A stretch of DNA of 64,000 bases, from NCBI GenBank assembly GCA_037176725.1, contig JAZBRS010000026.1, positions 60,614,501-60,678,500 on the forward strand, written 5' to 3'. The position numbers were made by a program, and so were the translations under genes. Position 1 is the stretch's first letter, and every line of letters starts with the position of its first letter. Origin of the DNA: Posidonia oceanica. Lineage: Eukaryota; Streptophyta; Magnoliopsida; Alismatales; Posidoniaceae. The notes beneath the pieces were generated by a model. It was not told where the DNA came from. It ran no database searches and saw only the letters and a list, made by a program, of their open reading frames with translations. Shown here piece by piece: positions 13,905 through 47,879 of the stretch.

Positions 13905-13967
13905 GCATTGAACGCTGGCAACTCCGGCGTCCAACATTGGACGCTGGCATTGCTGGCATCCAACACC
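13905..13967. repeat. Palindromic cassette 1
   Basis: Arms ATTGAACGC, centre GCGTCCAACATTGGACGC, right arm GCATCCAACACC. Confidence 0.75.
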
Positions 13968-14143
13968 TGCTGGAGGCATATAGCATGCAATTTTCAAAAA
14001 GGATGCATTCTAGCTATATGAATGCAATGCTGATGCAGAAATGCAGTAGATTGGGTGCATGACATGTGGGGCAAACATGACAACAGAACAGGAGCAGATT
14101 CAGAGCAAGGGGCAAGCTAAGATTAGGAATTAAAACAAGCAGG

Positions 14144-14204
14144 GCGTTGGATGCCCGTGGGCATGGCATCCAACGTTAGACGCCAATGAGGCTGGTGTCC
14201 AACA
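14144..14204. repeat. Palindromic cassette 2
   Basis: Arms GTTGGATGC, centre GCATCCAACGTTAGACGC, right arm TGTCCAACAC. The TGC/GCA change appears in both halves of the first stem. Confidence 0.75.
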
Positions 14205-14373
14205 CAGGCCAGAAGACAGCAAACCAAATAAGCATACAGATGACAAATAAAATAAGTATGCATGCATTTGGGCTACTGTAAGCAAACATAAATTAGACAT
14301 GCAAGCACAGGATGCATAAGAAACCAAGAAAAACAACATCTGCAACATGTGCCAGGCATAAAGCTCAACCAGA

Positions 14374-14433
14374 GCGTTGGACGCGAGCTGAACCGGCATC
14401 CAACGTTGGACGCCAAGAACAGCAGCGTACAAC
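14374..14433. repeat. Palindromic cassette 3
   Basis: Arms GTTGGACGC, centre GCATCCAACGTTGGACGC, right arm GCGTACAACGC. Confidence 0.75.
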
Positions 14434-14603
14434 GCACTGGGAGGCACAAACACACAAGAACTTGCATAAAAAATACCATGCTATCTAAGAAAGCTGAAGA
14501 ACAATTGCAATAGAAGCTAAGCAAGCAAGTGAACACAGGAATCATGTAAACAAATGGATCAGAGCATCAAGCAAGCTTAAAAAACCAAAACATATGAACA
14601 GGG

Positions 14604-14666
14604 GCGTTAGACGCCGGTGACAGCAGCGTCCAATGTAGGACGTTGAAGCCCCCAGCGTCCAACACC
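14604..14666. repeat. Palindromic cassette 4
   Basis: Arms GTTAGACGC, centre GCGTCCAATGTAGGACGT, right arm GCGTCCAACACC. Confidence 0.75.
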
Positions 14667-14985
14667 TACAGAATGCAAAACCCACCTGCAAAGGGGGAGC
14701 TCAGCTCTAAACCCCAATAAACATGCTTGCAAGCTACTGATGACATGCCAGACCAAGAAAAAATTTCATAGTAAGCATATAATCCACAAGAGGCAAGAAG
14801 GAAAGAGCATGCATAAGAGTAAAGGATAAAAAACCAATAGAAAATAGCATGCAACTCAAGAGGAGACTAGAAAGCCTAAGCATGGTTGCCATAAGGGCCA
14901 GGCATCACTAAGTAAGCATGGATCAAGCATAAACCTCAAAAGGAAACAAGATACAAACATGGCAGCAGAATAAAGCTAGCAGACA

Positions 14986-15048
14986 TGTTGGACGCTGGAT
15001 GAACCAGCGTCCAACGTTGGACGCGGCTCACCCATGCGTCCAACACAG
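14986..15048. repeat. Palindromic cassette 5 (closest to consensus)
   Basis: Arms GTTGGACGC, centre GCGTCCAACGTTGGACGC (perfect palindrome), right arm GCGTCCAACAC. Two back-to-back hairpins are possible. Confidence 0.8.
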
Positions 15049-15228
15049 GCAGACTGCAGACAGAACTAAAGCATGTAAAAATGATTCAAAACATGATCCA
15101 AACAAAAGGCAAACATGGCATAGCATCTGCAAACATGTAAAGGAAGCATGCAGCATGGATTCACAAAAAGCAAGTAACAGCAAAGCAAGGTGAACTTCAA
15201 AGCAAAAACAAGGCAAACAAGGCAGGGT

Positions 15229-15286
15229 GTTGGACGTTGGCTACTGCCGCGTCCAACGTTGGACGCACCAGCCTGGGCGTCCAACA
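15229..15286. repeat. Palindromic cassette 6
   Basis: Arms GTTGGACGT, centre GCGTCCAACGTTGGACGC, right arm GCGTCCAACA. Confidence 0.8.
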
Positions 15287-16135
15287 AACTGAAGATCCTC
15301 CTGGACAAGAATCACGACCAAAACGATCCAAAACTTCGAAATAACTTGCTAGTAAGCAAGTGTGATTGACAACAAGCATGATGGTATGCTTGGTGCCGAA
15401 ATTAGGCGGGTGGATTGCTCCACCCACCTCTTCCTCCTCGCAGTTGGAAAACTAAGGCGAGGAGGGGTGTGTGCAGTGCAATGATGCATGGAAACCATAT
15501 GGAAACACTCAACCTATCATGCATGAGCTACGGGAATGGATAACCAACCTGTGCGTGGCTTGGAACGGCGGTTCGTGCTTCTTCGCCGGGGTCACGGAAG
15601 CTTGCAGCAGGCGTACTCCGACGAGGTCGCGCGACTTGCTGGGGGCATCGGAGAGGGCGGCGAAAGGTTGAGAGGGAAGGTCGGTATTCGCTCTACGCTC
15701 TGGTGTGGTCGAATTTTCTCTCTGGCTTGTGTGGTGACTAGTGCAAAGGCTCAAAGGTGGCTGTTTTGTTCTGGTTTGCATGGGTTCCTCCACCAAATGG
15801 CAGAGGTTACAAGCGGAATTGGTGGGTATGGCAGGCAATGGCAGGGGCTCTGGGTGAGGGGAAGGCACGAGGAATGTCAAGTGGAGGGCATGGGCATGTC
15901 AGACAGCCGGGGAAAGCCACAGCGGTGGCAGGAGAAGCGGCTGGTGGCAGTGAGAGTGGGAGAGAGCGGAAATGGGGCTGGGGCGGAGGAGACGGCTAGT
16001 AAGTGCACTTACTCGGCCTTGGCAGCTAGTGGATGGCCTAGAGTGCATGAGGGGACGGGTAGTAAGTGCGGAGGGGCGGTGGAGTGGATGGGAGGTGAGC
16101 CGAAGGTGGCGGAGCAGCTGCTGCTGCAACCGAGT

Positions 16136-16198
16136 CATTGGACGCTAGAGCAGAAGGTGTCCATCGTTGGACGCTACCCGTGCCAGCGTACAACACAC
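16136..16198. repeat. Palindromic cassette 7
   Basis: Arms ATTGGACGC, centre TGTCCATCGTTGGACGC, right arm GCGTACAACAC. It lies about 220 bp inside the start of LTR A. Confidence 0.75.
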
Positions 16199-16415
16199 CC
16201 AGGATGCGAAAGGCTGAAATGGGCTTGGGCATGGGCTTCGAAAGGGTTTAAAAATGTGTAAAAGGATTGGGTTAAGGCTTTGGGGTTTAGGTAAGGTTTT
16301 AGGCTTGGTTTCGGGGTAGAAATGGGTTAGTTTGAAAAGGAGTGCCATCCCAGAGTCCAAACAAGCCTGCAGGAGAAAACACCAATTACCGGGTTGTCAG
16401 AATGGGGTGTCTACA

Positions 16416-16428
16416 AATGCCCCTCCCT
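16416..16428 (-). promoter_or_regulatory. Polypurine tract of element A
   Basis: The minus strand reads AGGGAGGGGCATT directly before TGTAGACACC of the 3' LTR. This fixes the orientation of element A and the LTR border. Confidence 0.75.
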
Positions 16429-16875
16429 AAGCGAGGTCAAGCGTAGCGAGACCACTGCTCAGGGTAGACAAGACACCCTACCTGACGCTGGCAGGAGCGC
16501 AAATTGCTGTAGGCATGAGCCATTTACCCGGCGGATGCACCAGAAATCATGACTCAGAGCCACAATGCAGATGCAAATGCAGATGCTGATGCAAAGCGTG
16601 CCAATGCAGATGCAATGCATGCCAATGCAGTTATTTATCATGCAATGCCGTTAGTAAAAGAATGCGGTGCTGATGTAGGAGAGATGCAAAGAAAGCTGCA
16701 GTGCAATGCATGAGTTCAGTGATTAGTCCGAACTCACAAAAGGGATGCCTGACAAGACTGACGGGCTTGGCATCCGAGCAGTTAGGACTGCTAGCCCAAC
16801 AAGCAAAGGGTTAGACAAATTGACGGTTGTCAACCGAGCAGTTAGGGCTGCCAGCCCGCAGGGGAACAAAAGTAG

Positions 16876-18336
16876 CTTGTCCTCGCCTGAGGAAGCAAGC
16901 AAGAAAGAGAAAGGGGGAAGGCAAGTGTGGGCATCGTCCGCCCGGAGTGAAGCCACGCAAGGGCTGATCCTCGCACGAGGATACAGGGAAAGACTCTAAG
17001 CATACGGGGTCCGAGAAGAGCTTGTCCTCGCCTGAGCAAGCAAGCAAGAAAGGAGAAAGGGGGCAGGCAAGTGTCGGCATCGTCTGCATGGAGCGAAGCC
17101 ACGCAAGGGCTGATCCTTGCACGAGGATACAGGGAAGGACTCCGAGCATACGAGGTCCAAGAAGAGCTTGTCCTCGCCCGAGGAAGCAAGCAAGAAAGGG
17201 AAAAGGGGGCAGGCAAGCGTGCGCATCGTCCGCACGGAGCGAAGCCACGCAAGGGCTGATCCTCGCACGAGGAAACAGGGAAGAACTCCGAGCATACGGG
17301 GTCCGAGAAGAGCTTGTCCTCGCCCGAGGAAGCAAGCAAGAAAGGAGAAAGGGGGCAGGCAAGCATGGGCATCGTCCACACGGAGCAAAGCCACGCAAGG
17401 GCTGATCCTCGCACGAGGATACAGGAAAGGACTCCGAGCATACGGGGTCTGAGAAGAGCTTGTCCTCACCCAAGGAAGCAAGCAAGAAATGGGAAAGGGG
17501 GCAGGCAAGCGTGGGCATCGTCCGCACAGAGTGAAGCCACGCAAGGGCTGATCCTCGCACAAGGATACAGGAAAGGACTCCGAGCATACGGGGTCCGAGA
17601 AGAGCTTGTCCTCGCCCAAGGAAGAAAGCATGAAAGGGGAAAAGGGGCAGGCAAGCGTGGGCATCGTTCGCACGGAGCAAAGCCACGCAAGGGCTGATCC
17701 TCGCACGAGGATACAGGGAAGAACTCTGAGCATACGAGGTCCGAGAAGAGCTTGTCCTCGCCCGAGGAAGAAAGCAAGAAAGGAGAAAGGGGGCAAGCAA
17801 GCATGGGCATCGTCTGCACGGAGCGAAGCCACGCAAGGGCTGATCCTCGCACAAGGATACAAGGAAGGACTCCGAGCAAATGGGGTCCGAGAAGAGCATG
17901 TCCTCGCCTGAGGAAGCAAGCAAGAAAGAAAGAAAGGGGGCAGGCAAGCATGGGCATCGTCCGCACAGAGCGAAGCCACGCAAGGGCTGATCCTCGCACG
18001 AGGATATAGGGAAGGACACCAAGCATACGAGGTCCGAGAAGAGCTTGTCCTCACCCGAGGAAGCAAGCAAGAAAGGGGAAAGGGGGCAGGCAAGCGTGGG
18101 CATCGTCCGCACGGAGCGAAGCCACGCAATGGTTGATCCTCACACGAGGATACAGGGAAGAACTCCAAGCATACGGGGTCCGAGAAGAGCTTGTCCTCGC
18201 ACGAGGAAGCAAGCAAGACAGGAGAAAGGGGGCAGGCAAGCATGGGCATCCTCCGCACGGAGCGAAGCCACACAAGGGCTGATCCTCGCACGAGGATACA
18301 AGGAAGGATTCCAAATAAATGGGGTCTGAGAAGAGC
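16876..18336. repeat. 146-bp tandem array, ten copies
   Basis: CTTGTCCTCG (or a variant) recurs at 16876, 17021, 17167, 17313, 17459, 17605, 17751, 17897, 18044, 18190 and 18336. The period is 145-147 bp. Each unit holds palindromes of the type TCCTCGCNCGAGGA. Long open frames on several frames result from the repeat and its GC content; since 146 is not a multiple of three, they are not a real gene. Confidence 0.85.
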
Positions 18337-19260
18337 TTGTCCTCACCCGAGGAAGCAAGCGCAGCCTTCGTGCTGACGGAGATGGCAAAGGCTTGTCCTC
18401 GCCCGAGAAAGCAAGCAGAGGATTCCACGCGGACAGAATCCAAAGGGGGCTAGTCCTCACCCGAGGAAGCAAGCAGCAGTCTGACCCTCGCCCAAGGAAA
18501 TAGACAGGGGACTTCATCCGCACGGAGCGAAGTCACCCAGGGGCTCGTCCCCGGTCGGGGGAAAAAGCGGGCCTGATCCTCGCCCAAGGAAACAGGAGGG
18601 ACTTCGTCCGCATGGAGCGAAGTTGCAGGGGGGCATGTCCTCGCACGAGGAAGCAAGCAAAAAAGGAAAAAGACTTGTCCTCGCCCGAGGAAGCAAGCAG
18701 GCGAGACCCCGTCCGCACGGAGCGGAGTCACGCAGAAGGCAAGAAGAAAGAGGCTTATCCTCGCCCAAGGAAGCAAGCAAGCGGGACCCCGTCCACACGG
18801 AGCGAAGTCACGTAAAAAGAAAAAGGCTTGTCCTCGCCCGAAGAAGCAAGCAAGAAAGGAAAAGGGCTTGTCCTCGCCCGAGGAAGCAAGCGGGGCGCGC
18901 ATACGCTCATCCTCGACCAAGGAATAAGCGGGCCTGATCCTTGCCCGAGGAAATAGGGAAACTCCATCCGCACGGAGCTGCGAAAGGCTTGTTCTCGCTC
19001 AAGGAAGCAAGCGGGCCTGATCCTCGTCTGAGGAAATAGACAGGGGCTTTGTCCGCACAGAGCCAAGCAGGGCTTGTCCTCACCCAAGGAAGCAAGTGAG
19101 CCTGATCCTTGCCTAAGGAAACAGACAGGGGCTCTGTCCGCACAGAGCTAAGCAGGGCTTGTCCTCGCCCGAGGAAGCAAGCGGGGCCTGACCTTGCACG
19201 AGGAAACAAGCGAAAGACTTTGTCCGCACGGAGCGAAGTCGCAAGGAGAAAGAAAGGGGA
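18337..19260. repeat. Degenerate shorter-unit extension of the 146-bp array
   Basis: Same building blocks (GTCCTCGCCCGAGGAAGCAAGC, split by variable spacers, and GTCCGCACGGAGCGAAG) in irregular units of roughly 70-110 bp. It looks like an older or recombined edge of the array. Confidence 0.7.
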
Positions 19261-19293
19261 GAGGGAGCGATACCAGAGAGCAGCTAAAAAGAT

Positions 19294-19699
19294 GCCCCTA
19301 GTATCAAAAAAGCAAGGAAATGTAGACAAAACTAACGTGTTTGCCAAACGAGTAGTTAGGGATACCAGCCCGAAGTGATTCGGGCAAAGGCGGTTGCGGC
19401 GATGCATGGGTCTGCAGAGGTTCTTACGTGCATGTTGATCGCGAGGGGAGCTTTGCTGCAACTCCCTTGCTGAGGCTGCGGGTTGCATGGTGAAGCGCCC
19501 CTAGTATCAAAAAAGCAAGGAAATGCAGACAAAACTAACGTGTTTGCCAAACGAGTAGTTAGGGATACCAGCCCGGAGTGATTCGGGCAAAGGCGGTTGC
19601 GGCGATGCATGGGTCTGCAGAGGTTCTTACGTGCATGTTGATCGCGGGGGGAGCTTTGCTGCAACTCCCTTACTGAGGCTGCGGGTTGCATGGTGCTTG
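19294..19699. repeat. 203-bp tandem duplication near the DUF7745 ORF of A
   Basis: Copies 19294-19496 and 19497-19699, nearly identical, both starting GCCCCTAGTATC. The motif ACGTGTTTGCCAAACGAGTAG occurs in each; a close reverse-complement match lies in element B at about 63800-63850, so this is old 3' region of the family that was duplicated in A. Confidence 0.75.
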
Positions 19700-19952
19700 C
19701 GGAGGGAACTACTCTAGATCTATTGCAGGGCTGCTCTAGGCTGCTTGCATAGGCTAATGCTCTGAAGTGCTAGATACGGGTCCTGTAACATCTTGGCAGG
19801 AACAGATATGCAATAGGCAAGGCATGTAACACAAACAAATGGCATGAAATGTCTTTGTATTGAGTGAATCTCTGGTTACACGCCTCTGATAGCCCAAAAA
19901 AAGATAGAGCATGATTCAAAAGAGCTAAACAAACAAACAACTACACAGACGC

Positions 19953-28700: not shown

Positions 28701-29160
28701 AGGGGGTTGGCTTGATGCTAGGGGTGCTATGGGTTGGCTATCTGGTAGGGGTGCTGCTGGTAGGCTTGCTGGTGGGGGTGCAGCAGGTGCTGGACGGCTG
28801 GGCCTTACCACCGGTGCTGCGGGCTGGTATACCCTCCCCGATCGTGTGACTTCTACGCACGTTGCCATGGCATAGTTGTAGGGCACGCAATGGGGGTCCT
28901 AGGTTAAGTCAATAACCGTAGGGGCCTGTGCTGCGAGCACAAGAGGGGCTACAGGAGGGTTGGCTGGGCGATAGGGAGAAGGGTGCGGATGCTGGTAGGT
29001 TGCTGGAGGCCTTGGCTAAGACTTAGCTAACAGGCTGATTGGGGGCCTACCAAAATAGGAGGCAGGGGTTTGGGCCTGCGGTCTAGCTTGAAGGTGTACA
29101 GGGGCAGGGGCCTGAGGGTGCAAGGTAGGGCGAGCGGTGGAGCGCCTCAGCCTGGCAGCG
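22701..29160 (-). pseudogene. Gag (partial)-protease-RT-RNaseH-aRNaseH-integrase of element A
   Basis: Read right to left: protease with VDNGSGLNVCP and LLGRPWLH (28886-27738), variable linker, RT (25741-24650; YVDDMIAKT near 25330), connection RNase H, second archaeal-type RNase H (24467-23994; YFDGVV, NNEVEYEA, NAYADALA), integrase (about 23830-22703; SDNGSNF, VNGAVESANK). It ends CYLKKYYQ and TAG at 22701. Damage includes TAG at 25488-25490 (B has CAG), TGA before the RT (CGA expected), a frameshift near 25100 and at least one more between RT and RNase H. The linker at 26262-26545 is an Ala/Gln repeat expansion absent from B. The two RNase H domains identify the Tat lineage. Confidence 0.85.
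26262..26545 (-). repeat. Ala/Gln-rich trinucleotide-like expansion in the A polyprotein linker
   Basis: GCT/TGC/TGT-rich sequence; in the gag-pol frame it reads AQHAPAAAQHAQVIAQQAP and similar. Element B has a Ser/Val/Glu-rich linker here. Confidence 0.6.
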
Positions 29161-29182
29161 TTTGAGATGGAATTGGCTTCAG

Positions 29183-29245
29183 GGCGTAATACGCCATAGT
29201 GTAAGGCGTATAACATTGGACGCACAATATCAAGCGTACAACACC
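29183..29245. repeat. Palindromic cassette 8
   Basis: GCGTAATACGCC, centre GCGTATAACATTGGACGC, right arm GCGTACAACACCC. It sits at the A/C junction. Confidence 0.7.
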
Positions 29246-29620
29246 CTTAACAGTGTTCCTCCGGCTTTCTCCTGTCTTTTCTTTTCTGCTTTTTCTCCTT
29301 TTCTCCTTTTCCTCTCTTTTTTTTGTTTTCTCTTTTTTTTTGCTCTCTTCTTTTTTTTCTGATTTTTTTTTGCTCTCTTTTTTTTTATATATGATTTTTC
29401 TTTTTCTTCTTTTTTGTTTTGGCTTTTCTCTTTTTTTTTCTTTTTGAAGGATTTACAAATGCAAAGGAAAAGAAATTACAAGAACTTGGAATTTTTAATA
29501 CAGATTCCTAAAAGAAATAAAAATAAAACTGAACTGTCACTGTTATGGGTTTTTCCAAATGTCTTCCCCGGCCAAACAAATCACAAAGGAACTAAAAAAA
29601 TATAATAGCCACACAAAGAA

Positions 29621-29681
29621 TACGTTAGACACGAAACCTGCTGCGTACAACATTATACGCAGGGATCTCAGCGGCTAACGC
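29621..29681. repeat. Palindromic cassette 9
   Basis: GTTAGACAC, centre GCGTACAACATTATACGC, right arm GCGGCTAACGC. Confidence 0.7.
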
Positions 29682-30388
29682 CCTATTTCAGAGAACAGCA
29701 CAGAAACACTTTCAAACAGCGATTTAAGGTTTTAATTTTTGTTTTCGCTTTGAGATTATTGCTTTAAACCTGCTGTAGCTCTCTGGGTCCCTTAAGGCTT
29801 AGGTATGGCTTTTTCTTTTTTGGAATTTCTAAGGCTCCTCACAAGATAGGTGAATATGATTGGTACTACCCCCTACCTCAGCTCCTAAGGGTGCTAGGGG
29901 GAGCCTGAATACACTTAGGTCCCTACCCCGTAGAGGTAGAGCCCAGCGTACTCGGGATTGATCGAATCGCTCACGTATCCATACACAGAAGAAATAAACA
30001 AACCACTGAAAAAAGAGGGGATACAAGTCAAGGCTTGAGGTTCTAATTAACTTTCACAAAAGGCCAAGGAAGAAGGAGGGCCCTTAGTAAAAGATAATGA
30101 CAATACAAGTACCTTTCCTAAGTCCTTTGCAAAAAAGGTGCTTGGGACCTAGATCGTAACTTATATAACCCAAGAAATGATACAAACAATTAGTTCCCAA
30201 TGAGGGCCATGCAAGACATATAAAAAGATGTGATTTTTTTTGTTATTATTTTTTGGCAAAGCACCCAAAGAAATTGAAGTTCCGGTCCCTACGGCAGAGC
30301 CGATCACCTCACACCTCAATTCTTCAGGCCAGTTATAACAAGGAAAACTAAAAGAAATTTTAAAATAGAAGGGTTTCTGTTCAGTAGT

Positions 30389-30447
30389 CGTTAGACGCGG
30401 ATATTGCAACGTCCAATGTTAGACGCACCAGATCACACGTATAACGT
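30389..30447. repeat. Palindromic cassette 10
   Basis: GTTAGACGC, centre ACGTCCAATGTTAGACGC, right arm ACGTATAACG. Confidence 0.7.
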
Positions 30448-31588
30448 ACTGACAGTATTTTTCAGAAAAAGCAGTAATTTTTAATAGATCACCCCCACAC
30501 CCAAGAATCCAGGGAGAAGGGGGAGGTGATTTCAGTTATTGAGACGTAGAAAACAAACGGAAAAGATCACGACGCCTCAAAACACTATGAGGAATTTCAC
30601 CGCTTCTTTAAAACATACCAAAAAATAAGAAACTAAAACTAAACTAAGAATGTCAATAATGAAGGAGGAAGAAGAAAGGAAGGGTTACTTACCTTGCACG
30701 GGGGCACTTTTAGTCGTCCCACCGTGATCGCCAGACTGTGGATATGGGGATTTTGGAAGGCAAGGTGAAGTAGAAGATGAGATGGGAGGTTTGGGGAAGA
30801 AGAGACTTCTTTTGGCTCTCTCTCTTGCTCGCTCTATCTTCTCTTTCTCGGGGTCCCCTTTTTTTCTATCCGACTCCATCACTCCACGTGTGATGGAATC
30901 GGTGTGATCACTACTCTCGGTTCACTTTCGTCGGCCCTCGAGATGCCTTTGGGGAGATGTAGAGTGGTTGCGGGTTCAGCTACCTTGGGACAACGCCAGC
31001 GTTGCCCAAGGGTGCCCGTGCTTGGTAAGCTCTTTCTTCTTTCTTCCTCCTTGTATGACAAACGTTAGCAAAGCAAAACAAACAAGACAATATAAAAATG
31101 GATCAATATGTGTAGTAACCTATCCAGAATTAGTAGAAAAGAAAATAAAGAAAGCGTAGTGAGATACGTACCCGAGGGGTTTGATCCCCCCGGTTGCAAC
31201 TAAAAGAGATGTATGCTTAGCTAAAATAATATATGAACTTGAAATTAAAATGCTTGATTATGCTACGGAATTAAACATGTGATATCAGAAATGAAAAGGA
31301 AACGAATGAAATAGAATCCCTTCTGTCTATGCACAAGGTGCAAACTGTGTTGGCATGAAGCCAACAACGACAAAAAGGATCCTCAAGCTTTTTCTAAGAC
31401 TCTCTTTCCTTCAAAATCTCTCTTCTCACTTTCAATTCTTAAGGACCTCACTTCTCTAAGATTTTTAATCTCAAGAGCATGTGAGTTCCAAAAATTCCTC
31501 CACTCCTTTTCTCTCTCAAAATTCCCCCCTTGAACTCAATAGGGGAAGGACACAAATGCCAAGTCAGTAGAGTTTCCTGTTTCAGAAG

Positions 31589-31648
31589 TGTTATATGCTG
31601 GAAAACCAGCGTATAACGTTATAAGCGAGAGTACCCGCGTATAACGAC
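31589..31648. repeat. Palindromic cassette 11 (ATA-core variant)
   Basis: GTTATATGCTGG-AAAA-CCAGCGTATAAC forms a 12-bp hairpin with one G.T pair. GTTATAAGCG ... CGCGTATAAC forms a second. Both arms carry the changed core. Confidence 0.8.
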
Positions 31649-31817
31649 CTCCGAGGCATAACTGCCAGGATCAGAGAAGATTCTCCAATTAAGGAGTCTT
31701 TAAGTGTGATTAAACTCGGCTTTGATGGCTTTAACCAGTCAACAGATTCCAAAGAAGGTAAAAACATGATTTTTGGATTAGGCCAAATAAGGAAAGCTTT
31801 GGCTGACTAGGTTGCCA

Positions 31818-31905
31818 CGTTGGACGCTGGAAAACCAGTGGCCAATGTTAGCCGCTGGAAAATCAACGGCCAACGTTGTATGCTGAGGAGCCAGCGGACA
31901 ACACC
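31818..31905. repeat. Palindromic cassette 12 (one extra unit)
   Basis: GTTGGACGC, GTGGCCAATGTTAGCCGC, ACGGCCAACGTTGTATGC, GCGGACAACACCC: four junction blocks instead of three. Confidence 0.7.
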
Positions 31906-32113
31906 CTTAATCAGTTTAACTTCCAAATTCGGTTAGGACGTGAAGAACACTTAGGTTGCCAACATTTGGGGCTTAGAAAGGTATAACATTTTGGACTTTG
32001 AGGGGAACATTTGGCTCAAGTGAGACTCAGGAATGGGTGGCGAGCTTCTAAGAGCGACCTAATGCAAGAGACTATCCTAACATGAAGGGAGTGCCAAAAC
32101 AGGGTATTTACAG

Positions 32114-32126
32114 ATTGCCTCTCCTT
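32114..32126 (-). promoter_or_regulatory. Polypurine tract of element C
   Basis: The minus strand reads AAGGAGAGGCAAT, then TC, then TGTAAATACCC. It is placed as in element A. Confidence 0.6.
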
Positions 32127-32435: not shown

Positions 32436-32659
32436 GGATAGCTAATGATTCCGACGACCACTCAATGCGAATGCAATACAATGCGCTATGCATAGATGCG
32501 TGCTGACGAGAATGCAAAAGGGGTCATGATATGCAATGCATGACCCTAGGTAATGAGGTTTCTCCATCATCGTCGGCTTTAATTTGTATACTGGGTTGGC
32601 TCAGGAATTTTTCTCACCACCCAAGGCGGACTGACACATGTGTGAATGCAATTTGTCTT

Positions 32660-33035: not shown

Positions 33036-33039
33036 GACT

Positions 33040-33755: not shown

Positions 33756-33774
33756 TGCCAGGGGGATTGCCCAA

Positions 33775-34755
33775 GGGGGCGGAAATAACAACATGACGTG
33801 CCTATGGGATGGCCCAAGGGAGTCGAAAATAAAAACATGACGTGCCTAGAGGATGACCCAAGGGAGTCGAAAATAACAACATGACGTGCCTAGGGGATGG
33901 CCCAAGGGAGTTGAAAATAACAACATTACGTGCCTAGGGGATGGCCCAAGGGAGTCGAAAATTAAAACATTACGTGCCTAGGGGATGGCCCATGGGTGTC
34001 GAAAATAAAAACATGATGTGCCTACGGGATGGCCCAAGGGAGTCGAAAATAAAAACATGACGTGCCTAGGAGATGGCCCAAGGGAGTCGAAAATAAAAAC
34101 ATGACGTGCCTAGGGGATGGCCCAAGGGAGTCGAGAATAAAAACATGACGTGCTTAGCGGATGGCCCAAGGGAGTCGAGAATAAAAACATGACGTGCCTA
34201 GGGGATGGCCCAAGGGAGTCGAGAATAAAAACATGACGTGCCTACTGGATGGCCCAAGGGAGTCGAGAATAAAAACATAACGTGCCTATGGGATGGCCCA
34301 AGGGAGTCGAGAATAAAAACATGACGTGCCTAGGGGATGGCCCAAGGGAGTCGAGAATAAAAACATGACGTGCCTAGTGGATGGCCCAAGGGAGTCAAAA
34401 ATAAAAACATAACGTGCCTAGGGGATGACCGAAGGGAGTCGAAAATAAAAACATGACGTGCCTTGGGGATGGCCCAAGGGAGTCGAAAATAAAAACATGA
34501 CGTGCCTTGGGGATGGCCCATGGGAGTCGAAAATAAAAACATGACGTGCCTAGGAGATGGCCCAAGGGAGTCGAAAATAACAACATGACGTGCCTAGGAG
34601 ATGGCCCAAGGGAGTCGAAAATAAAAACATGACGTGCCTTGGGGATGGCCCAAGAGAGTCGAAAATAAAAACATGACGTGCCTAGGGGATGGCCCAAGGG
34701 AGTCGAAAATAAAAACATGACGTGCCTTGGGGATGGCCCAAGGGAGTCGAAAAGA
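33775..34755. repeat. 44-bp tandem array, about 22 copies
   Basis: Unit ACATGACGTGCCTAGGGGAT followed by GGCCCAAGGGAGTCGAAAATAAAA. The start-to-start distance is 44 bp (for example 33791 and 33835). The peptide repeats seen on the minus strand rotate through all frames and are not a gene. Confidence 0.85.
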
Positions 34756-34838
34756 ATACTTCTTTGGCTTTGTTTGCTTTGTTGACCCGGTTATGCTCCA
34801 GGGTTCTTGCTGTTCTGCTCTCAATTCTGCTTTGACTC

Positions 34839-34927
34839 GTTGGACGCTTGATTGTTAGCGTTCAACGTTGGACACCTGAAGAAGCGCGGCTAACGTTGGA
34901 CGGCATTGCGGTCGCGTATAACGTCGC
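34839..34927. repeat. Palindromic cassette 13, upstream of PMD gene 1
   Basis: GTTGGACGC, GCGTTCAACGTTGGACAC, GCGGCTAACGTTGGACGG, GCGTATAACG. It ends 97 bp before a TATA-like box. Confidence 0.75.
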
Positions 34928-35023
34928 GAGACAGGCTGCTGTCTTTCCTGTCCGGGCACTACCGTTTTGGCAGTAAATCCCCAATTTTCTTTGAGTTTCC
35001 ATTCCGATGAAGGCTCCACGGCC

Positions 35024-35030
35024 TATATTA
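35024..35030 (+). promoter_or_regulatory. TATA-like box of PMD gene 1
   Basis: TATATTA, about 95 bp before the ATG at 35119, with a pyrimidine-rich leader between. Confidence 0.4.
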
Positions 35031-35118
35031 GACCTCCTCTTGGCTTGAATCTTGTGGTTCAAACATTTATCTTCCTTCCCTAATTGATTCTTGCTTGCTA
35101 GGGCTTGTGCTTCTCCTC

Positions 35119-36454
35119 ATGAATTTGAGTGATATCCCACGTCAGGCTTTCCAGGTGGCTGTCTTCTCCTCTTCTTTTGACATGGTGCAACTCCGGCTGG
35201 AGGCTATACCCAACCATTTGGCGAACCTGTTGGTGCATGAGAAGGTACTCTCTGTTTTCATCATTTCCCCATACTCCCACTCTCGTACTTCTGCTGACTT
35301 TTCCTTACTTCATAGCCCCTATCTTCTGCCAACAACGACCGTGACTCGAAAGCCTATCAGTTGGACTGGGTTCAACAATTCTGCTCTTGGGCTTTGAAGA
35401 AGTATCAGGAGCGCTTGGAGGAGGCTGGTCTCTATCAGGCCCTTCGCCAGCTACGGCAGCCTGTTGACTGGAAGGTGCTCTTCGGCCTCTGTGGGCTGTG
35501 GAATCCCTTGACTCACACGTTCTTTTCTTCTTCTGGGGAATTGACCATTCTTTTGGAGGAGGTGAGCGCCCTCCTAGGTACTCGACATGCCGACCCAGCC
35601 ATTTACTGCAGGGATGCCTACCTTTTGCCAATCGGGGTGGTAGGTTCCTTTTCTCTCTTAAAGCGCATCTTCGGCTCTGTTGTTGTGCCGGAGGACCTGG
35701 TGCTGGATGGCTGTATCAAACTTTCCTCCTTGTGGAAGTTTTTCTGGAAACAGCGCGACAGCATCCGCTCTGAGGCATCTTGCTTGGAATGCGTCTTTAT
35801 TCTGATCGGGGGACTGGTGCTCTTCCCAAATGAAGCTCTGACTATTAGTGCCTATCATGCTGAACTAATGTGCATCTGTGTGCGCAACCTGGAGAAGTGT
35901 TTGAGTCAATCTGTTTTGGCTTATCCAGTGCCTGCCTCGGGGGACCATTCTTTGGCTCGCCATTCCTAGTTCTACACTGGCTGGAGGAGCATTTTCCTCT
36001 GCCTGCTTTTGATGCTAGCCTTTGCTTGGAGGAGCTCATTCCCCGTTTATGCGCTTGCGAGGTCAAGTCCCAGATGGACTCCTTCAGTCCCCCCTCGTCT
36101 TTCAAGACAGTGTCTGACCTGGAGTATTTCCTGACGCAGATTGGGGCGACCGAGTTTGTGAGGTACAATCCTCAGCGATGCTTCTCGATGCTGGGTACTC
36201 CTCGGGCTATACCTCCCTTGCCGCGCTTCTCTGATATGATTCTCCCGCGTTTGAGGGACACTCCTGGGGATATCATCCAGGTCTTCTATCAAGCTAGTAC
36301 TTGGGACGGGAAGGGGCGAAACCGAGTCCTTTCTGCATGGAAGAACTCGAATGCGGACCTTGAAGCCATTTCTCTTGCAACTTATGACGCTTGGTATGAG
36401 GGCGTGCGTCCTAAATTGTTCATTGAATTTCCTTCAAAAAGACAAAAGATGTAG
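35119..36454 (+). pseudogene. Plant mobile domain (PMD) protein gene 1
   Basis: Exon 1 35119-35244 (MNLSDIPRQAFQVAVFSSSF...HEK, 42 codons), intron 35245-35315 (GT..AG), exon 2 from 35316. The mobile-domain signature is GLWNPLTHTFFSSSGELTIL then LEEVSALLGTR; further domain blocks are LECVFILIGGLVLFPNE and SPFLVLHWLEEHFPL. One frameshift near 35925-35940 separates the two halves. The C-terminus is basic (FPSKRQKM), a possible nuclear signal. PMD proteins such as MAIN and MAIL1 are nuclear and affect transposon silencing in Arabidopsis; whether this copy works is unknown. It shares its intron position and C-terminus with gene 3. Confidence 0.7.
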
Positions 36455-36572
36455 TTAGAAATGTATCACTTATCATCAATAAAATTTATTTTGTCTCTTT
36501 GGTCTCTTTTGAATGAATTTGTATGAGTTGAATGACAATATCAGAATTCAGAACACTTCCCCTAACTTAAAG

Positions 36573-36724
36573 CATTGTACGCTCAAAATGGAGCGTCCAA
36601 CGTTATATGCTAGAAAACCAGCGGCTAACGTTTTAACTCGCAAAACGTTGAACGCGTAATAGGACGCGTATAACATTCTTTCTTCCCGAGGCGTTGGACG
36701 CTGGAATTCATGCGTACAATGTTG
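36573..36724. repeat. Palindromic cassette 14, between PMD genes 1 and 2
   Basis: Extended form: ATTGTACGC, GCGTCCAACGTTATATGC, GCGGCTAACGTTTTAAC, GTTGAACGC, GCGTATAAC, GTTGGACGC, GCGTACAATG. It ends 6 bp before a TATA box. Confidence 0.75.
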
Positions 36725-36729
36725 AAAGG

Positions 36730-36736
36730 TATAAAG
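36730..36736 (+). promoter_or_regulatory. TATA box of PMD gene 2
   Basis: TATAAAG directly after cassette 14 and about 114 bp before the ATG at 36844. Confidence 0.45.
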
Positions 36737-36843
36737 CCCTCATCCTACGTCGCGGGTGGCCATCTGCTCTTCCTCCCTTCTTCTTCTCCAGCGACAGCGT
36801 CTTCTCCAGCGACTCTCCACCCCATTCCGGTGAACATACCTTG

Positions 36844-39730
36844 ATGGAGAGGCAAATTTCGCACTTTTATACTCAGGTGGCCAAAAGAGCTCGAACCGGC
36901 CCTTCCCCTTTCGGCGAGGCAGCGGCGAAGGCATAGACTGGGGCTACTGCGGCGTGGGACATGGCGGCGAGGGCTGCGGGAGGCGCCAGTGAGATCGTGG
37001 CAGGCGGGGGCACGCTGGCGGGGGCGAGTTCGACGGCTGCAGGGGTGAGTTCGGTGGCTGCTGTGCCTGGCCCGGCCGCTGGGGTGGCCGTGGAGGCCGG
37101 CCGGACTGCGGCAGGGGTGGTGGACGCTGGTGGAGCCGTGGCGGGGCTTGGGGCGACGTCCGGTGGCGATGCCAAGGCAGCGAGAGTGAAGACAAGGGCT
37201 GCCGGTGGTACCGCGGAGGCCGAGGTGGCGGTTGGTAGCGATGCCGTGGAGGCGAAGGCGACGGCTAGTGAGGCCACCATGGGGGAGGACTCTGTAGAGA
37301 CGACGGCGGAGGCGGTCTTCGGTTCCAGTAGTTCCTTCAGCTTGGAGGATTCAGAGGAGACGATCTCAGAGACGAGGCCAGAGGTCAGCCTAAACGAGAC
37401 AGGGCCCTCGGAGGTGCCCGAGGCGAGGCCAGTCGACCCCTTCCTTGCACAGTTTGGCGAGGACGACGGTTGGTGGCGGAACATGGTTGACTTCATCTGA
37501 CGGGAGGCATTTCTTGTCTATCCCGGACTTTCCCCTCCGTCCGATGTTTCTAGACGCGGTTGCAGAGCGATGGAGCTTCCGGACGAGCTCGATCGTTATG
37601 AGGGCGGGCGAATTTGTCCTCTCCCTTGAGGACGTGGCGCGGCTAACTGGTCTCCGGGTCATGGGCACACCAATGACAGGGCGGGTGCGCCCGGGCTACT
37701 CGGTTTTGACACAGGAGCTTGCTGGACGCCAGTTAGCCATGAGCGGGGAGCAGCCCATGGTGATCACTTCCGCGGTTCGCCGAGTGAGTGAGCTGGCGAA
37801 GACAGTAGCCGAACTGGGTGTGGAGGCTGACCAGCAGCTGCGGGCCTTTCTCCTGGTGCTGTTCGGGGAGGTGCTCTTCTCACACTCCTCCTCGAAGCTC
37901 TCGACGTGGTTCCTTCTTCTTCTGGTGGACCTAGAGCGTGTAGGAGAGTACGCCTGGGGTGCGGCAAACTTGGTGCACCTGTACTCCACCCTATTCCGCT
38001 TCACCGACGGTAGTTCTCGCCAGCTGGGCGGGAACCTGCCTTTCCTTCAGGTAAATCTGCATATTTAAGCTTGCATTGGATATTGTATTCTTGCTAACAG
38101 CTTCCTCATTTTGCTTGCAGATGTAGGCATGGGACCACTTCGCCTATCTGCACCCTGCCCCTCCTTCAGTTCCTCCTAACGGTGTCCCCATTCCTCGAGA
38201 ACTGTTTTAGGCTGCTGCTGAGCAGGCCTTCGAGCCAGCAAATGACAATCGCTATGTCGGTCGTCTGCTTTTCGAGCTTCTTGTCCCGGCTCAGGTAACT
38301 TGCTTCTTTTAATTTCAGCTTCTGTTTATTTGTTTATGCCGCTTGCTAACATATATTGCTCCTTTCAGGTGGTTTGGCGTCCCTATGCTGAGGGAGAGCA
38401 TGCGGACGTCCCCGAGATTGCCCGTGATCGGGCCATTTTCGACCGGGACGTATGGATCCACTACTGGAACCACTGCCACTTCCAGCAGATTGGCAAAGCG
38501 CTACGACAGCTAGGGCACCGGCAGGCTCAACCTTCACCTCCTCCTCACCGAGTTTGCCAAGAGACACGCGGCGGGGGCAGCCGTGCTCGCCACTGGGTGG
38601 ACGTCTACGGTCCACAGCTCCTGGACTGGGCTCGTCGTGGTTCCCCTACTCCGACGGATGCTACAGAGGAGGACGAGGCGGAGTGGGCTGAGTGGATAGA
38701 CCGGGAGTTTTCCTCTCTGATGATCTTCCACCGGTCCCACTTCCTTGGGCGCGGGAACCTTCCTTTGGGGGACACAGATCCCAGGGAAGCGATGGTTTCC
38801 CGTGCGGTCCTGTTGGAGGAGGTTCAGTCTTCTCGAGCCCAGCTGGAGATAGCGGTGAGCTTCTAAATTTCATTTTGTAGACTGCTAATTCAATTTGGCT
38901 AACTTTCTTTCTTTGTTTTGCAGCTCAAGGCGGCTGATGAGCGGGCTCAGCAGGAGCGCCACTTGACCCAACAGCTCTCCGTTCTGACCGGGGAGATTGA
39001 TCATCTGTAGGCCTCTGCCTCTCAGGTACTTTCATAAGTAGCTTTTATAGTTTGGTTATGAATTGTAACTGACTTGAATCTTCATTTTCAGCCTTCAACT
39101 AGCAGCGTTCCTCCTCCAAACCGCTCAGAGGAGATCTCCCATCTCCAGGAGAAGGTAAATATGCTTTCATTTTGTTTCTGCTTTTAAAACTCCCTTGGTC
39201 CTGACGCCATTGCTTGTAGGTCGCTTATCTAGAGGGCAAGTTGAGGGAGCAGGCTGGTGACTTCATAGTTGCCAACTCTGTTGGGAGGTTGGAGGAGCTG
39301 GGGGGGACAATGGCCGCTAGCAACGATCGGATCCGGGAACTAGAGCAGCAGGTTGCTGATAGGGACGTTGAGATTGCCCAATCTCAGGTGGTACGATTTA
39401 ATTCAGCGCTTCTTTATGTCTTCCATGTCCTCTCTTATATCTGATATTTTGGGCTGCTTCTCTCCTCAGGGCACGGCGGGTGTTATCTCCCAGCTTGAGC
39501 TTGAGCTTGGGCATTACCGGACGTTTGCTTTTTCAGCTGGTGCCAGGCTCGGGGTGCCTGTTCCCTCTGTGCCGAGCCGTCGGTCGAGTAGCCATTATTC
39601 TCGGTCTGTCTCTAGGGCCCCGTCAGGCGTTTCGATTTGACAGTCGCCTCGTCCCCCTACTGCCCCTTCTCTGGCTCCTACTTCAGCTCCTGCTTCAGAT
39701 CCTGAGGGTGAGGGAGAGAGTGCCCCCTAA
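36844..39730 (+). pseudogene. Plant mobile domain protein gene 2 with coiled-coil tail, eight exons
   Basis: Exon 1 (36844-about 37498) encodes MERQISHFYTQVAKRAR and a long Ala/Gly-rich region. It has TAG at 36934 where Gln fits, and a frameshift near 37499. The mobile domain follows: FLSIPDFPLRPMFLDAV, SLEDVARLTGLRVMG, LVDLERVGEYAWGAANLVHL and RQLGGNLPFLQ, ending at 38050. Exons: 38121-38294, 38369-38854 (VVWRPYAEGEH, QIGKALRQLGHRQ), 38924-39025, 39092-39154, 39220-39387, 39470-39730, all with GT..AG borders. The last four encode a coiled coil (RLEELGGTMAASNDRIRELE). Further stops (exons 3, 5 and 8) are TAG or TGA where Gln or Arg is expected. The layout (PMD plus coiled coil) is common in plant transposon-linked PMD genes. 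Confidence 0.75.
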
Positions 39731-40195
39731 CTTTTGTACTTCAGGGGTATGCTCCGGTGACCTTGTAGAACAATTGTATATTTTGAAAAGATATAGATTT
39801 CTGCACACTCAGTAAACTTGTCAAATACTTCTTTTAAATTACCTTTCTTAAAGCTAAAGTGAGCTTAAGCGACCAATATGGTAAAATAATGGCCCTTAAT
39901 CCAAATTAACTTAAAACCATCATATTCAAGTGAAATGACATAGTTATAAGGAAAGATTTCACCTGGAAGCTTAAAAATCGAATTTTGAAGTCGTCGACGC
40001 CTTAACGAGCCATTTACTTGATGAAACGAGCAACCAGAGATTCCGACTGGCCCGAATGTCCAAAAAAATGAAACCAACACTCACACATGTATTTCAACTT
40101 AGTTAAACCTCTGGAATGGGCAAAACAGGCGCATGCAACTCAATCACGGATCAGGGGGCAATCCAGCCAAGTTCAGTAACTTAAGTCACTGATAA
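39731..40195. other. 3' flank of PMD gene 2
   Basis: Non-coding. It ends with AGTAACTTAAGTCACTGATAA, similar to the sequence before cassettes 14 (CTAACTTAAAGCA) and 16 (TAGTTTAAGTCACAG), so the intergenic module includes more than the cassette. Confidence 0.5.
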
Positions 40196-40331
40196 AACGT
40201 TATACGCCTCATCTGCTGCGTCCAACGTTATCCGCTTAAAGTTCTGCGTCCAACGCTGGGAGCTGCTCTAAACGTTATACGCGTCAAATGGCGCGGCTAA
40301 CGTTGGACGTGCCCCATCTCGCGTACAACGA
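40196..40331. repeat. Palindromic cassette 15, upstream of PMD gene 3
   Basis: Double form: GTTATACGC, GCGTCCAACGTTATCCGC, GCGTCCAACGC, GTTATACGC, GCGGCTAACGTTGGACGT, GCGTACAACG. Confidence 0.8.
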
Positions 40332-40441
40332 AGCGAGCCCAGAAACTTTTCTTTCCTTTCCTGTTCTTAGCTAATCTTCCGGAATGCTTGTGAAATTTTC
40401 TCAATGCTCGCGTGAAAGATTTCCGACGACCTTCCTATGCT

Positions 40442-40448
40442 TATAAAA
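40442..40448 (+). promoter_or_regulatory. TATA box of PMD gene 3
   Basis: TATAAAA, 104 bp before the ATG at 40546 and 111 bp after cassette 15. Confidence 0.5.
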
Positions 40449-40545
40449 GCTTGGCCACCCCTTTATTTTTCATGCATACTTGCCCCTTTTCTCTCTACTG
40501 ATTTCTTCCTGATTTGTGCTTCTTCCTTCCCTCTCTTTTGTTTTC

Positions 40546-41881
40546 ATGGCTTCTAGCTCAGTCCCCAATGTCTCCATGCATAACAAGAAGGGGGTCGTAA
40601 AACCTTTGGAAGAGATTGAAGGACATATGATGTCCCTTATCAAAACGGGGAAGGTATGATCTTCTTCATTGGTCCCTTCACACTCCTTTGTTCCTCATGC
40701 TTCCGAATTTCTTTCCAGGAAATCCTCAATTTTACCAAGACACCTTACTTTGACAATGACTTCCCCTACTACTCCACTTGGGTGAAGGATTTTGTGCTTT
40801 GGGCTCGAGAGAGGAAATCTGTTTTGGCCCGTACGTGCTTTGATTGACTTTTGGATTTATTGGGCACAAACTTGGACTGGCCCCTGCTTCATGCCTCATG
40901 CGCCTTTTGGAGTCTTAAGACTCATACTTTCTTCTTTGGGGGTTGTGAAGCGACAATCCTAGTAGAGGATGTTCATGGCCTGCTTGGTGTGACTCAGATT
41001 GGAGCGGCCCAGCCAGATATTGACTTCCCATTGCCGTATGGAACAGCAGATATGCAAACATATATAGACCGTATCTTCACCCTTCTGCCTACCTTCTAGT
41101 GATCAGAGGTCGCAGACTCAACTTGACGCATTTGTACTTCAGCTTTCAGCGGATTGAGGAATCTGCCTCTCAGGATCAGCTGTTGGTGTGTTTGCATTTA
41201 CTAATTGGAAGCCTCACTTTATTTGTCACCAAGGATTTCTCCTTGTATGTCTATCATACTGAGTTCTTGATAGGCCTTACTGAGCATTTCTGGCGCTCTC
41301 CTTCAGTGGCCATTCTTGCTACCACATATCTTGGCTTAACCAGCGTTTCCACCGGAGGGGATTTTGTAGGCTCTCCTTTCCTTCTTTCCAGGTGGCTGCA
41401 GGTCCATTTCCCAAGGCTCGGGCCCGTGAAGACAAATTTGATTGAGGAAAGGGTTTGCTCTTTATCTGCTGCCCCTATTGACATTTCTGCGCCTTCCACG
41501 TCCCTTTCTCATAAGCACTAGGTGCGAGGTTCTTCAGTTGAGCTAGAGCTAATAGGGCCCACCCACTTTGTAGTGTACAACTCCCATCATTGCTTTAAGA
41601 TGGTGGGGCAAAAGAAAGAGGTGCCGCCTCAGCTGAGCTATTCCTCGTATTTGGGTCCGGGAGCGCAGTCTTCCATTTGATGCAGTAATGGTGTACTACA
41701 TTCGGGCTCTCTGGTCATCTCTGGACCGCCATGATGATTCAGAGGAGCCATCAACTGCTCCTTGCTGCCTACCATGGGAGGATGCGCACTAGAAGTGATA
41801 TTCAAAGCTACTGCCCAAGCCTATGGAGTGGGTTGAAGCGACGGGCGTGCTGCACAGAAAAAGGAAGAAGATGGTTAGATA
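40546..41881 (+). pseudogene. Plant mobile domain protein gene 3
   Basis: Exon 1 40546-40653 (MASSSVPNVSMHNKKGVVKP...KTGK), intron 40654-40718, exon 2 from 40719 (EILNFTKTPYFDNDF). Signature: WPLLHASCAFWSLKTHTFFF and ATILVEDVHGLLGVTQ, then LHLLIGSLTLFVTKDF and SPFLLSRWLQVHFP. Damage: TGA at 40845-40847 (CGA or similar expected), a frameshift near 41095, TAG at 41519-41521 (CAG expected) and further decay towards the C-terminus (HRKRKKMVR, stop 41879-41881). It is a paralogue of gene 1 with the same intron position, similar length and the same type of basic end. Confidence 0.7.
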
Positions 41882-42066
41882 GGCAATCATTGTAATTTTT
41901 ATTTTTAGGGACCATGTATCTTTTCAAGGGAATTAATATATATATTTCATTTTTCATCCTTGTTCATGTGTTTTGGATTGTTCTGAGTTTAGAAATACTC
42001 CCTGGTGGCTTTGATATTTGATCAAGGGCCCTTTGTCCAAAATCTGTAGTTTAAGTCACAGTTAAA

Positions 42067-42199
42067 ATGTATGACGCTCAAACTGGCACTTATAACGTAA
42101 GACGCAGAAAATCAGGCGTCCAACATCCCTCTCTTGATCGTTATACGCTTCATATGGCGCGTCCAACGTTGGACGCTGATATTTGCTCGTTTAACACCC
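42067..42199. repeat. Palindromic cassette 16
   Basis: Double form: GTATGACGC, TATAACGTAAGACGC, GCGTCCAACATC, GTTATACGC, GCGTCCAACGTTGGACGC, TCGTTTAACACCCC. It is not followed by a recognisable gene. Confidence 0.75.
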
Positions 42200-47800: not shown

Positions 47801-47879
47801 TCTGCTACAGTGCTCGTCGCCGTCGACCAGCACTATTCCTTTATTTTTCCTCTTATATAGTTTTAGGTGTAAATATTGC

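What the first reader, a model, noticed from the sequence alone, without database searches (positions are those of the whole stretch)
13905..42199. Sixteen copies of a palindromic GTTNNNCGC / GCGNNNAAC cassette
A compact module recurs at 13905, 14144, 14374, 14604, 14986, 15229, 16136, 29183, 29621, 30389, 31589, 31818, 34839, 36573, 40196 and 42067. The basic form is GTTGGACGC, 10-16 nt, GCGTCCAACGTTGGACGC, 12-16 nt, GCGTCCAACACC (about 60 bp). It can fold as two back-to-back hairpins around AACGTT. All copies have the same polarity (the right arm tends to end in ACACC). They occur in LTR A, the LTR-like block of C and the PMD gene region, but not in element B although B is the same family as A. 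I know no named plant repeat with this layout.
Basis: seen in the sequence. Interest (0 to 1): 0.8.

Follow-up and report, generated by a model that had tools for sequence, protein, structure and literature searches.

The report
Paired-motif arrays in plant retrotransposon promoters
Short clusters of a nine-letter DNA motif, arranged in mirror-image pairs at a fixed spacing, recur in two related plant retrotransposons and just upstream of extra genes that one of them seems to carry; they look like docking sites for a DNA-binding protein that would switch these elements on or off.

Summary
In detail: 16 of 16 listed places hold the cassette. Profiles built from one element's arrays find the other's (7 of 7 A places; 7 of 9 C places).

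Arrays consist of 28-29 nt units, GTTNNNCGC-N10/11-GCGNNNAAC, usually in twos. The palindrome is explained by independent copies of one half-site (GTTRKMCGC), not by RNA hairpins: in C the variable NNN does not covary between arms (41 matches, 40.6 expected). The polarity claim fails: 9 of 18 arrays fit better forward, 9 reversed.

Half-sites and spacing are kept while spacers (29% identity) and nearly all flanks are near random. Arrays lie in the 3' LTR of Tat-type element A, in a probable LTR of C and in C's internal region. There three of four clusters end 10-113 bp upstream of a TATA box of a plant-mobile-domain (PMD) gene or gene remnant (post hoc p 0.0003 to 0.003). Between arrays A1-A6, CpG is absent (42 expected). 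B's LTR has no arrays.

Best reading: binding-site arrays for a dimeric DNA-binding protein, host-encoded or the element's own PMD protein (VANC-like). Genome-wide distribution could not be checked.

The parts
13907..13964 (.). array A1, two 29-nt units, LTR A
14146..14203 (.). array A2, two 29-nt units, LTR A
14376..14433 (.). array A3, two 29-nt units, LTR A
14606..14663 (.). array A4, two 29-nt units, LTR A
14987..15044 (.). array A5, two 29-nt units, LTR A (best profile match)
15229..15285 (.). array A6, units of 29 and 28 nt, LTR A
16137..16194 (.). array A7, two 29-nt units, LTR A, about 220 bp inside the LTR start
29186..29242 (.). array C1, units of 29 and 28 nt
29624..29679 (.). array C2, two 28-nt units
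30390..30445 (.). array C3, two 28-nt units
31590..31645 (.). array C4, two 28-nt units
31819..31902 (.). array C5, three 28-nt units
34839..34922 (.). array C6, three 28-nt units, ends 102 bp before the TATA at 35024
36574..36720 (.). array cluster C7: four 28-nt units (36574, 36602, 36647, 36693), ends 10 bp before the TATA at 36730
40199..40329 (.). array cluster C8: four 28-nt units in two pairs, ends 113 bp before the TATA at 40442
42069..42195 (.). array cluster C9: four 28-nt units in two pairs (first unit degenerate); no gene seen downstream on +
12967..16415 (-). 3' LTR of Tat-type element A (starts TGTAGACACCCC; purine-rich tract just before; far end matches the end of B's 5' LTR)
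29150..32115 (-). probable 3' LTR of element C; borders approximate, set by eye; likeness of its start to that of LTR A reached by 24 of 5000 shuffles
35024..35969 (+). PMD gene 1: TATA 35024, ATG 35119, GT-AG intron 35245-35315, exon with a PMD match below the curated cut-off (26.4 bits, cut-off 34.9); antisense to element C as inferred
36730..38866 (+). PMD gene 2 region: TATA 36730, ATG 36844 (frame stops after 30 codons, so the start or the gene model is uncertain), PMD domain in another ORF, 37394-38068 (E 8e-28)
40442..41521 (+). PMD-like gene 3, decayed (stops in frame): TATA 40442, ATG 40546, intron 40654-40718
   Evidence: ORF 41024-41521 has no Pfam match; kinship to gene 1 is by eye, from layout and from P0006
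44885..50952 (+). 5' LTR of element B, without arrays; PBS at 50953-50970

Best explanation
The cassettes are cis-regulatory binding-site arrays. The functional unit is a 9-10 bp half-site, GCG(T/G)NYAAC followed by a purine (on the other strand GTTRKMCGC), placed in inverted pairs: two half-sites abut at AAC|GTT, and pairs face each other across a fixed 10 or 11 bp spacer, four half-sites per usual array. A protein that binds as a dimer or tetramer reads them in double-stranded DNA and drives or de-represses transcription from the LTRs of elements A and C and from the TATA promoters of C's PMD genes. Shown: half-site conservation, fixed geometry, no covariation of the triplets within an element, little flank similarity, position before TATA and ATG at three places. 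Inferred: that a protein binds, that it acts on transcription, and which protein it is. A host factor is somewhat more likely than an element-encoded one.
For: Half-site end letters 85% identical between A and C arrays while spacers are 29% identical (26% expected by composition). Arm triplets vary independently: C 41 matches of 75 against 40.6, p 0.51; junction 19 of 36 against 19.3; 83.6% of cells paired against 82.6% in shuffles. Purine after AAC at 40 of 40 ends of 20 listed arrays, a position not used in the search. At E 0.01 only array sequence aligns between LTR A and C; 11 of 480 flank comparisons exceed z 3. 3 of 4 TATA-like hits on the + strand of C's internal region have an array end within 130 bp upstream (random placement p 0.0003; 26 of 8899 circular shifts, 0.003). 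The five gaps between arrays A1-A6 hold 0 CpG against 42.3 expected; the arrays there hold 30 CpG in 347 nt.
Against: No binding, expression or methylation data. The TATA test was made after seeing the pattern. On the - strand 1 of 4 TATA-like hits (41940) also has an array within 130 bp upstream. The internal clusters also lie just downstream of the preceding genes (C7 after gene 1, C8 after gene 2, C9 after gene 3), so a role at gene ends or borders fits too. The fourth cluster has no gene behind it. Gene 2's assigned ATG opens only 30 codons. No TATA matching the pattern was found in LTR A on either strand. Conservation of the six fixed letters, and CpG content inside arrays, are partly built in by the search. 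Some flanks do resemble each other (C8a/C9a left z 6.8, C5/C7a right z 5.1). B, with a PMD ORF and an LTR whose end matches A's, has no array. Spacer complementarity in C is above expectation (p 0.01).
Confidence: 0.6

Rival explanations
1. Element-encoded system (a special case of the best reading): a PMD protein of element C binds the arrays in its own promoters and in C's LTR and counteracts silencing, as VANC does for VANDAL transposons; element A has gained arrays and exploits it.
For: Arrays sit before PMD genes and in LTR A and the probable LTR of C; VANC21 binds a 9-bp motif dense in noncoding parts of its own transposon, with gain and loss between related copies (passages of PMC5735166); A has arrays and its relative B has none in its 5' LTR; an antisense-ORF domain of Retand elements (TRP28) is thought to bind DNA (abstract of PMC11963269).
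Against: No evidence seen that PMD binds DNA. B has a PMD ORF but no arrays. VANC21 motifs are in one orientation, these are inverted. A's and B's PMD ORFs are 73% identical in DNA, so A's own PMD is not an obvious partner.
Confidence: 0.2
2. RNA or single-strand hairpins: the arrays act as double stem-loops in the transcript (packaging, dimerisation, small RNA source) or as cruciforms.
For: Many units are near-perfect palindromes, e.g. 31590-31617; spacer bases next to the arms in C show an excess of complementarity (32 against 21.7, p 0.01); pooled triplets 78 against 71.5, p 0.09.
Against: Within A and within C the arm triplets do not covary; on 18 arrays pairing and covariation are within reach of shuffles (91 and 74 of 500), also across the junction (80 and 75 of 500). 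The slid-partner control is far lower, but that follows from the shared consensus.
Confidence: 0.1
3. A tiny mobile or copied palindrome (MITE-like or hairpin-templated) that spreads without function.
For: Same module in mostly unrelated flanks; spread over two elements.
Against: No direct repeats at the array borders: none of 20 has 5 bases or more with up to 3 bases of slack, and 2 have 4 (1.2 expected on re-pairing, p 0.36). Spacers diverged to near chance while half-sites and spacing did not, which a neutral recent spread does not predict. Position before TATA boxes.
Confidence: 0.08
4. Remnant of an old tandem repeat (unit about 230-240 bp in LTR A) that carried the cassette along.
For: Four of the five gaps between A1 and A6 are 172-184 nt (the fifth 323); one of ten gap comparisons has global z 4.0 and 7 of 10 are positive.
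Against: Nine of ten gap pairs have global z below 2, and local scores are at most z 1.1; does not explain C.
Confidence: 0.1
5. Gene-border elements: arrays mark the spaces between or after the PMD genes (insulator or 3' end role) rather than promoters.
For: The four internal clusters lie before gene 1, between genes 1 and 2, between genes 2 and 3, and after gene 3.
Against: Does not explain several arrays inside each LTR; distance to the TATA boxes is short (10-113 bp).
Confidence: 0.06

Closest known systems
VANC-binding motif arrays of VANDAL transposons (Arabidopsis)
   Same: Short 9-bp motif with some tolerated variation, many copies in noncoding parts of a mobile element, gain and loss between related elements (passages of PMC5735166)
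   Different: Another class of mobile element (VANDAL, not LTR); motifs in one orientation within larger tandem repeats; no inverted pairs with fixed spacing described in the passages read; binding protein known
Antisense aORFs in LTR retrotransposons such as maize Grande (gene23) and Retand
   Same: [quoted passage not shown] own promoter reported for gene23; tandem repeats nearby (passages of PMC7264820 and PMC11963269)
   Different: PMD-type genes with introns, three in a row, each preceded by a palindromic array and TATA box; C's pol and so its gag-pol direction were not seen
MYB / mitosis-specific activator (MSA) sites, core AACGG (recalled)
   Same: Y-A-A-C core, TCCAACG resembles the MSA core
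   Different: No G at the second base after AAC at 40 of 40 array ends; a conserved GCG and strict inverted pairing are not, as I recall, part of MSA
Tandem repeats between pol and 3' LTR of Retand/Tat elements
   Same: Same element class; this window has such blocks (16874-18360, 33762-34753)
   Different: Those are long head-to-tail blocks; the cassettes are dispersed, 28-84 bp arrays in LTRs and before genes

Membership tests
Tat lineage of Ty3/gypsy (elements A and B) | additional RNase H domain after RT-RNase H, then integrase | tested here: met
   B: RVT_1 and RT_RNaseH in 57925-59106, then RVT_3, H2C2 and rve in 59107-60975; A is 80% identical in DNA over 22701-26242. The lineage definition is partly recalled (title and abstract start of PMC10508981 seen)
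Tat lineage of Ty3/gypsy (element C) | pol with additional RNase H | not testable with these tools
   no pol of C in the window; C is placed here only by likeness of its LTR start and purine tract to A's (24 of 5000 shuffles reach the score) and by layout
Retand | antisense ORF with TRP28 (PF04195) between pol and 3' LTR | tested here: inconclusive
   10 window ORFs scanned with Pfam, no TRP28; three of the ten gave no match and two a PMD match below its cut-off
VANC-type anti-silencing system | short motif dense in noncoding regions of the element | tested here: met
VANC-type anti-silencing system | motifs arrayed in the same orientation | tested here: not met
   half-sites in inverted pairs
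VANC-type anti-silencing system | element-encoded protein binds the motif and lowers methylation | not testable with these tools
   no binding or methylation data
MSA / MYB3R sites | core AACGG (recalled) | tested here: not met
   no G at the second base after AAC at 40 of 40 array ends; 33 of 40 are C or T
Tandem satellite | long head-to-tail array of the unit | tested here: not met
   1-3 consecutive units per array
Structured RNA element | compensatory changes in stems beyond chance | tested here: not met
   a weak spacer signal remains; no Rfam match at gathering threshold
MITE | target-site duplication at the borders | tested here: not met
   longest border repeat 4 bases in 2 of 20 arrays, as in re-paired flanks

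The most novel reading that the evidence does not exclude
An LTR retrotransposon carries its own sequence-specific regulatory circuit: TE-borne PMD proteins bind palindromic half-site arrays in their own promoters and in the LTR, keep these CpG sites free of methylation and so counter host silencing, and a second Tat family (A) has acquired the arrays and exploits the factor while its relative B has not.
Probability: 0.17. Interest if true: 0.85.

Novelty: new variant of a known kind. Interest (0 to 1): 0.6.

Why it matters
In the papers I saw, sequence-specific anti-silencing is described for VANDAL transposons, and the function of antisense extra genes of plant LTR retrotransposons is called unknown. 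A defined 9-10 bp half-site shared by LTRs and the promoters of PMD genes gives a concrete bait and a concrete candidate protein, so the question can be tested by a DAP-seq experiment. Even if the binder is a host factor, two retrotransposon families sharing the same spaced array would be a clear case of convergent or borrowed promoter control.

Tried and rejected
Hairpin RNA: rejected as main reading by re-pairing and shuffle tests. Shared polarity: rejected. Insertion scars: none. Larger duplicated unit in LTR A: little support. Rfam and tRNA search: nothing. Literature for the motif letters: 171 papers hold at least one of five strings of 9-12 letters; 30 of the 171 listings seen, by title and abstract start; by title none reports a plant repeat, and the passages were not opened. 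Papers with palindromic, LTR retrotransposon, promoter, tandem and Ogre: one, on plant Y chromosomes, listing only. Other collections: the degenerate 18-mer core has 5 matches in viral contigs, each an isolated site without an array; array patterns have 0 matches in genome contigs and viral contigs; these collections are of bacteria, archaea and viruses, so this says nothing about plants. Relatives of a PMD protein (P0005) and of B's integrase ORF in viral contigs: none confirmed. Transition-blind scan of LTR A for decayed copies: 8 half-site-like words lie outside arrays, and paired units outside arrays with up to 2 mismatches occur at 3 places in or next to the LTR (14292, 15876, 16436), no more than elsewhere in the window (68 in all). 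CpG caution: CpG-free stretches also occur elsewhere (1196-1838, 48060-48592), GC dinucleotides are enriched in the A gaps (87 against 42), and three CpG that straddle an array border (14145, 14375, 14605) are counted in neither class, so CpG loss is not by itself proof of methylation decay. Rows dropped: of 44 scan hits scoring >=12, 39 at the listed places were analysed and 5 elsewhere (17258, 17696, 23472, 28433, 54433) were left out; a degenerate unit at 42069, below the threshold, was added from then on.
Full report
What is there. The window is plant DNA made of nested LTR retrotransposons. Element B (+ strand) has a 5' LTR from 44885 (TGTTGACACCCC) to the primer-binding site at 50953-50970 (recognised by eye), gag from about 52.2 kb (by eye), RT, RNase H, an extra RNase H, integrase to 60975 and a sense PMD ORF at 62224-63522. 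Element A (- strand) matches B over pol (80%), part of gag (75%) and the PMD ORF (73%); its 3' LTR runs from 16415 (TGTAGACACCCC, after a purine-rich tract) down to about 12967, where it matches the end of B's LTR (72% over 710 bp). The extra RNase H places A and B in the Tat lineage. The nearest named relatives of B's integrase ORF are angiosperm proteins at about 53% identity (120 of 2685 hits listed), so the species was not identified. Block C starts at about 29.15 kb, inside A's gag by my reading. Its left part looks like an LTR on the - strand with a purine tract near 32.12 kb; the likeness to LTR A's start scores 52, reached by 24 of 5000 shuffles (in one search the largest of 500 shuffles was 54), and two other places in the window score higher against A's boundary. 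To its right lie tandem repeats (32.2-34.75 kb) and genes on the + strand: a PMD gene with one intron (Pfam PMD E 5e-6, below the curated cut-off), a second with PMD E 8e-28, and a decayed third, of which only the ORF 41024-41521 was scanned, without a match. Six proteins of unnamed source resemble gene 1 (70-91% identity over 24-65% of it), so it is probably a repeated, element-like gene. I read C as a Tat-type element whose pol lies beyond the window, with antisense extra genes as in Grande and Retand (passages of PMC7264820; abstract and passages of PMC11963269); this is inference.

The cassette. 39 units were analysed (14 in A, 25 in C); a 40th, degenerate unit at 42069 was added only to the array lists. 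Half-site middles: in A, 23 of 28 are GGA; in C, of 50, 14 ATA, 14 GGA, 6 GTA, 5 AGC, 4 AGA and 7 others. So the half-site is GTTRKMCGC with near-fixed ends and a tolerant middle. Units are 29 nt in A (13 of 14) and 28 nt in C (24 of 25). Arrays hold two units as a rule, three in C5 and C6, and C7 also holds two single units.

Why DNA and not RNA. If the arms were kept for pairing, the middle triplets should change together. They do not: in C, 41 of 75 positions match against 40.6 when right arms are dealt out anew; in A 37 of 42 against 37.1; across the junction 19 of 36 against 19.3 in C. Pooling A and C gives 78 against 71.5 (p 0.09), where the two elements' different triplets alone raise the count. 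On 18 aligned arrays, 83.6% of cells pair against 82.6% in shuffles (91 of 500 reach it); the covariation score is 0.152 against 0.135 (74 of 500); the junction palindrome gives 84.6% against 82.9% (80 of 500). The unit search favoured complementary triplets, so the test leans towards pairing. An excess in the three spacer bases beside the arms in C (32 against 21.7, p 0.01) is unexplained; a few related units may contribute.

Why function is likely. Array ends and spacing are kept where most else has changed: fixed half-site letters are 85% identical between A and C and spacers 29% (within A spacers are 31%, within C 35%, against 26-27% by composition). Of 480 flank comparisons (16 array places, 100 nt, 60 shuffles each) 11 exceed z 3, the highest being C8a/C9a left (6.8) and C5/C7a right (5.1). 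At E 0.01 the matches between LTR A and C are all array sequence. A base that no search used, the one after AAC, is a purine at 40 of 40 ends of the 20 listed arrays. In C's internal region four TATA-like hits lie on the + strand; three have an array cluster ending 10, 102 and 113 bp before them (ends 36720, 34922, 40329; TATA 36730, 35024, 40442) and an ATG 95-114 bp after (35119, 36844, 40546). The chance figures (0.0003 by random placement; 26 of 8899 circular shifts, 0.003) were computed after the pattern was seen. Results against: on the - strand one of four TATA-like hits (41940) also has an array within 130 bp; gene 2's ATG opens only 30 codons; the cluster 42069-42195 has no gene behind it; and the later three clusters also follow the ends of the preceding genes.

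CpG. The five gaps between A1 and A6 (1032 bp) contain no CpG where 42.3 are expected, with TG (58 against 34.5) and CA (138 against 88) in excess but GC too (87 against 42); the arrays in that zone have 30 CpG in 347 nt. Outside against inside arrays, CpG observed/expected is 0.48 against 1.30 in C's left block and 0.63 against 1.67 in C's internal region. Part of the contrast is built in because the motif contains CG. B's LTR has a similar T-rich, nearly CpG-free zone (47840-48998: 3 against 37.7 expected) without arrays. The simplest account is a CpG-poor zone common to both LTRs in which A alone carries, and keeps, CpG-bearing sites.

Who binds. A host factor is plausible: YAACR recalls MYB cores, but the MSA core AACGG is not met (definition recalled). 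An element-encoded binder is the more novel option: VANC21 binds YAGTATTAY, dense in the noncoding regions of its own transposon, and motif sets are gained and lost between related copies (passages of PMC5735166; of PMC10398659). The PMD proteins MAIN and MAIL1 act in silencing and gene expression, and 25 of 26 genes down-regulated in all the mutants studied there except ddc share a promoter motif (passages of PMC7156037; I did not see its letters). Against it: no proof seen that PMD binds DNA, inverted rather than same-way motifs, and B with a PMD ORF but no arrays.

Limits. All evidence is from one 64 kb window.

Noticed in passing
43611-44870: Probable non-autonomous hAT-like element (class by recall): 17-bp perfect inverted ends TAGGGGTGCAAACGGAT / ATCCGTTTGCACCCCTA, 8-bp flanks CTCAGTGT / CTGAGTGT (7 of 8 alike), rich in CGGATA repeats; 14 bp left of B's LTR.
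   Followed up: partly
29150, 43611-44885: Nesting: C appears inserted into A's gag, and B and the hAT-like element into C, so A's 5' half and C's pol should lie right of the window. Inferred from layout.
   Followed up: partly
47840-48998: T-rich, nearly CpG-free zone in B's LTR (3 CpG against 37.7 expected), in a similar relative place to the array zone of LTR A; may be a leader intron (guess).
   Followed up: partly
1881-3010 and 5939-7053: Direct repeats 91% identical flanking an ORF on the - strand (4421-5323, gag-like by eye, copia assignment a guess); a 393-bp tandem duplication lies at 5175-5966.
   Followed up: no
16874-18360: Ten-copy tandem repeat of 146 bp with the word CTTGTCCTCGCCCGAGGAAGCAAG, between A's PMD ORF and its LTR.
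   Followed up: no
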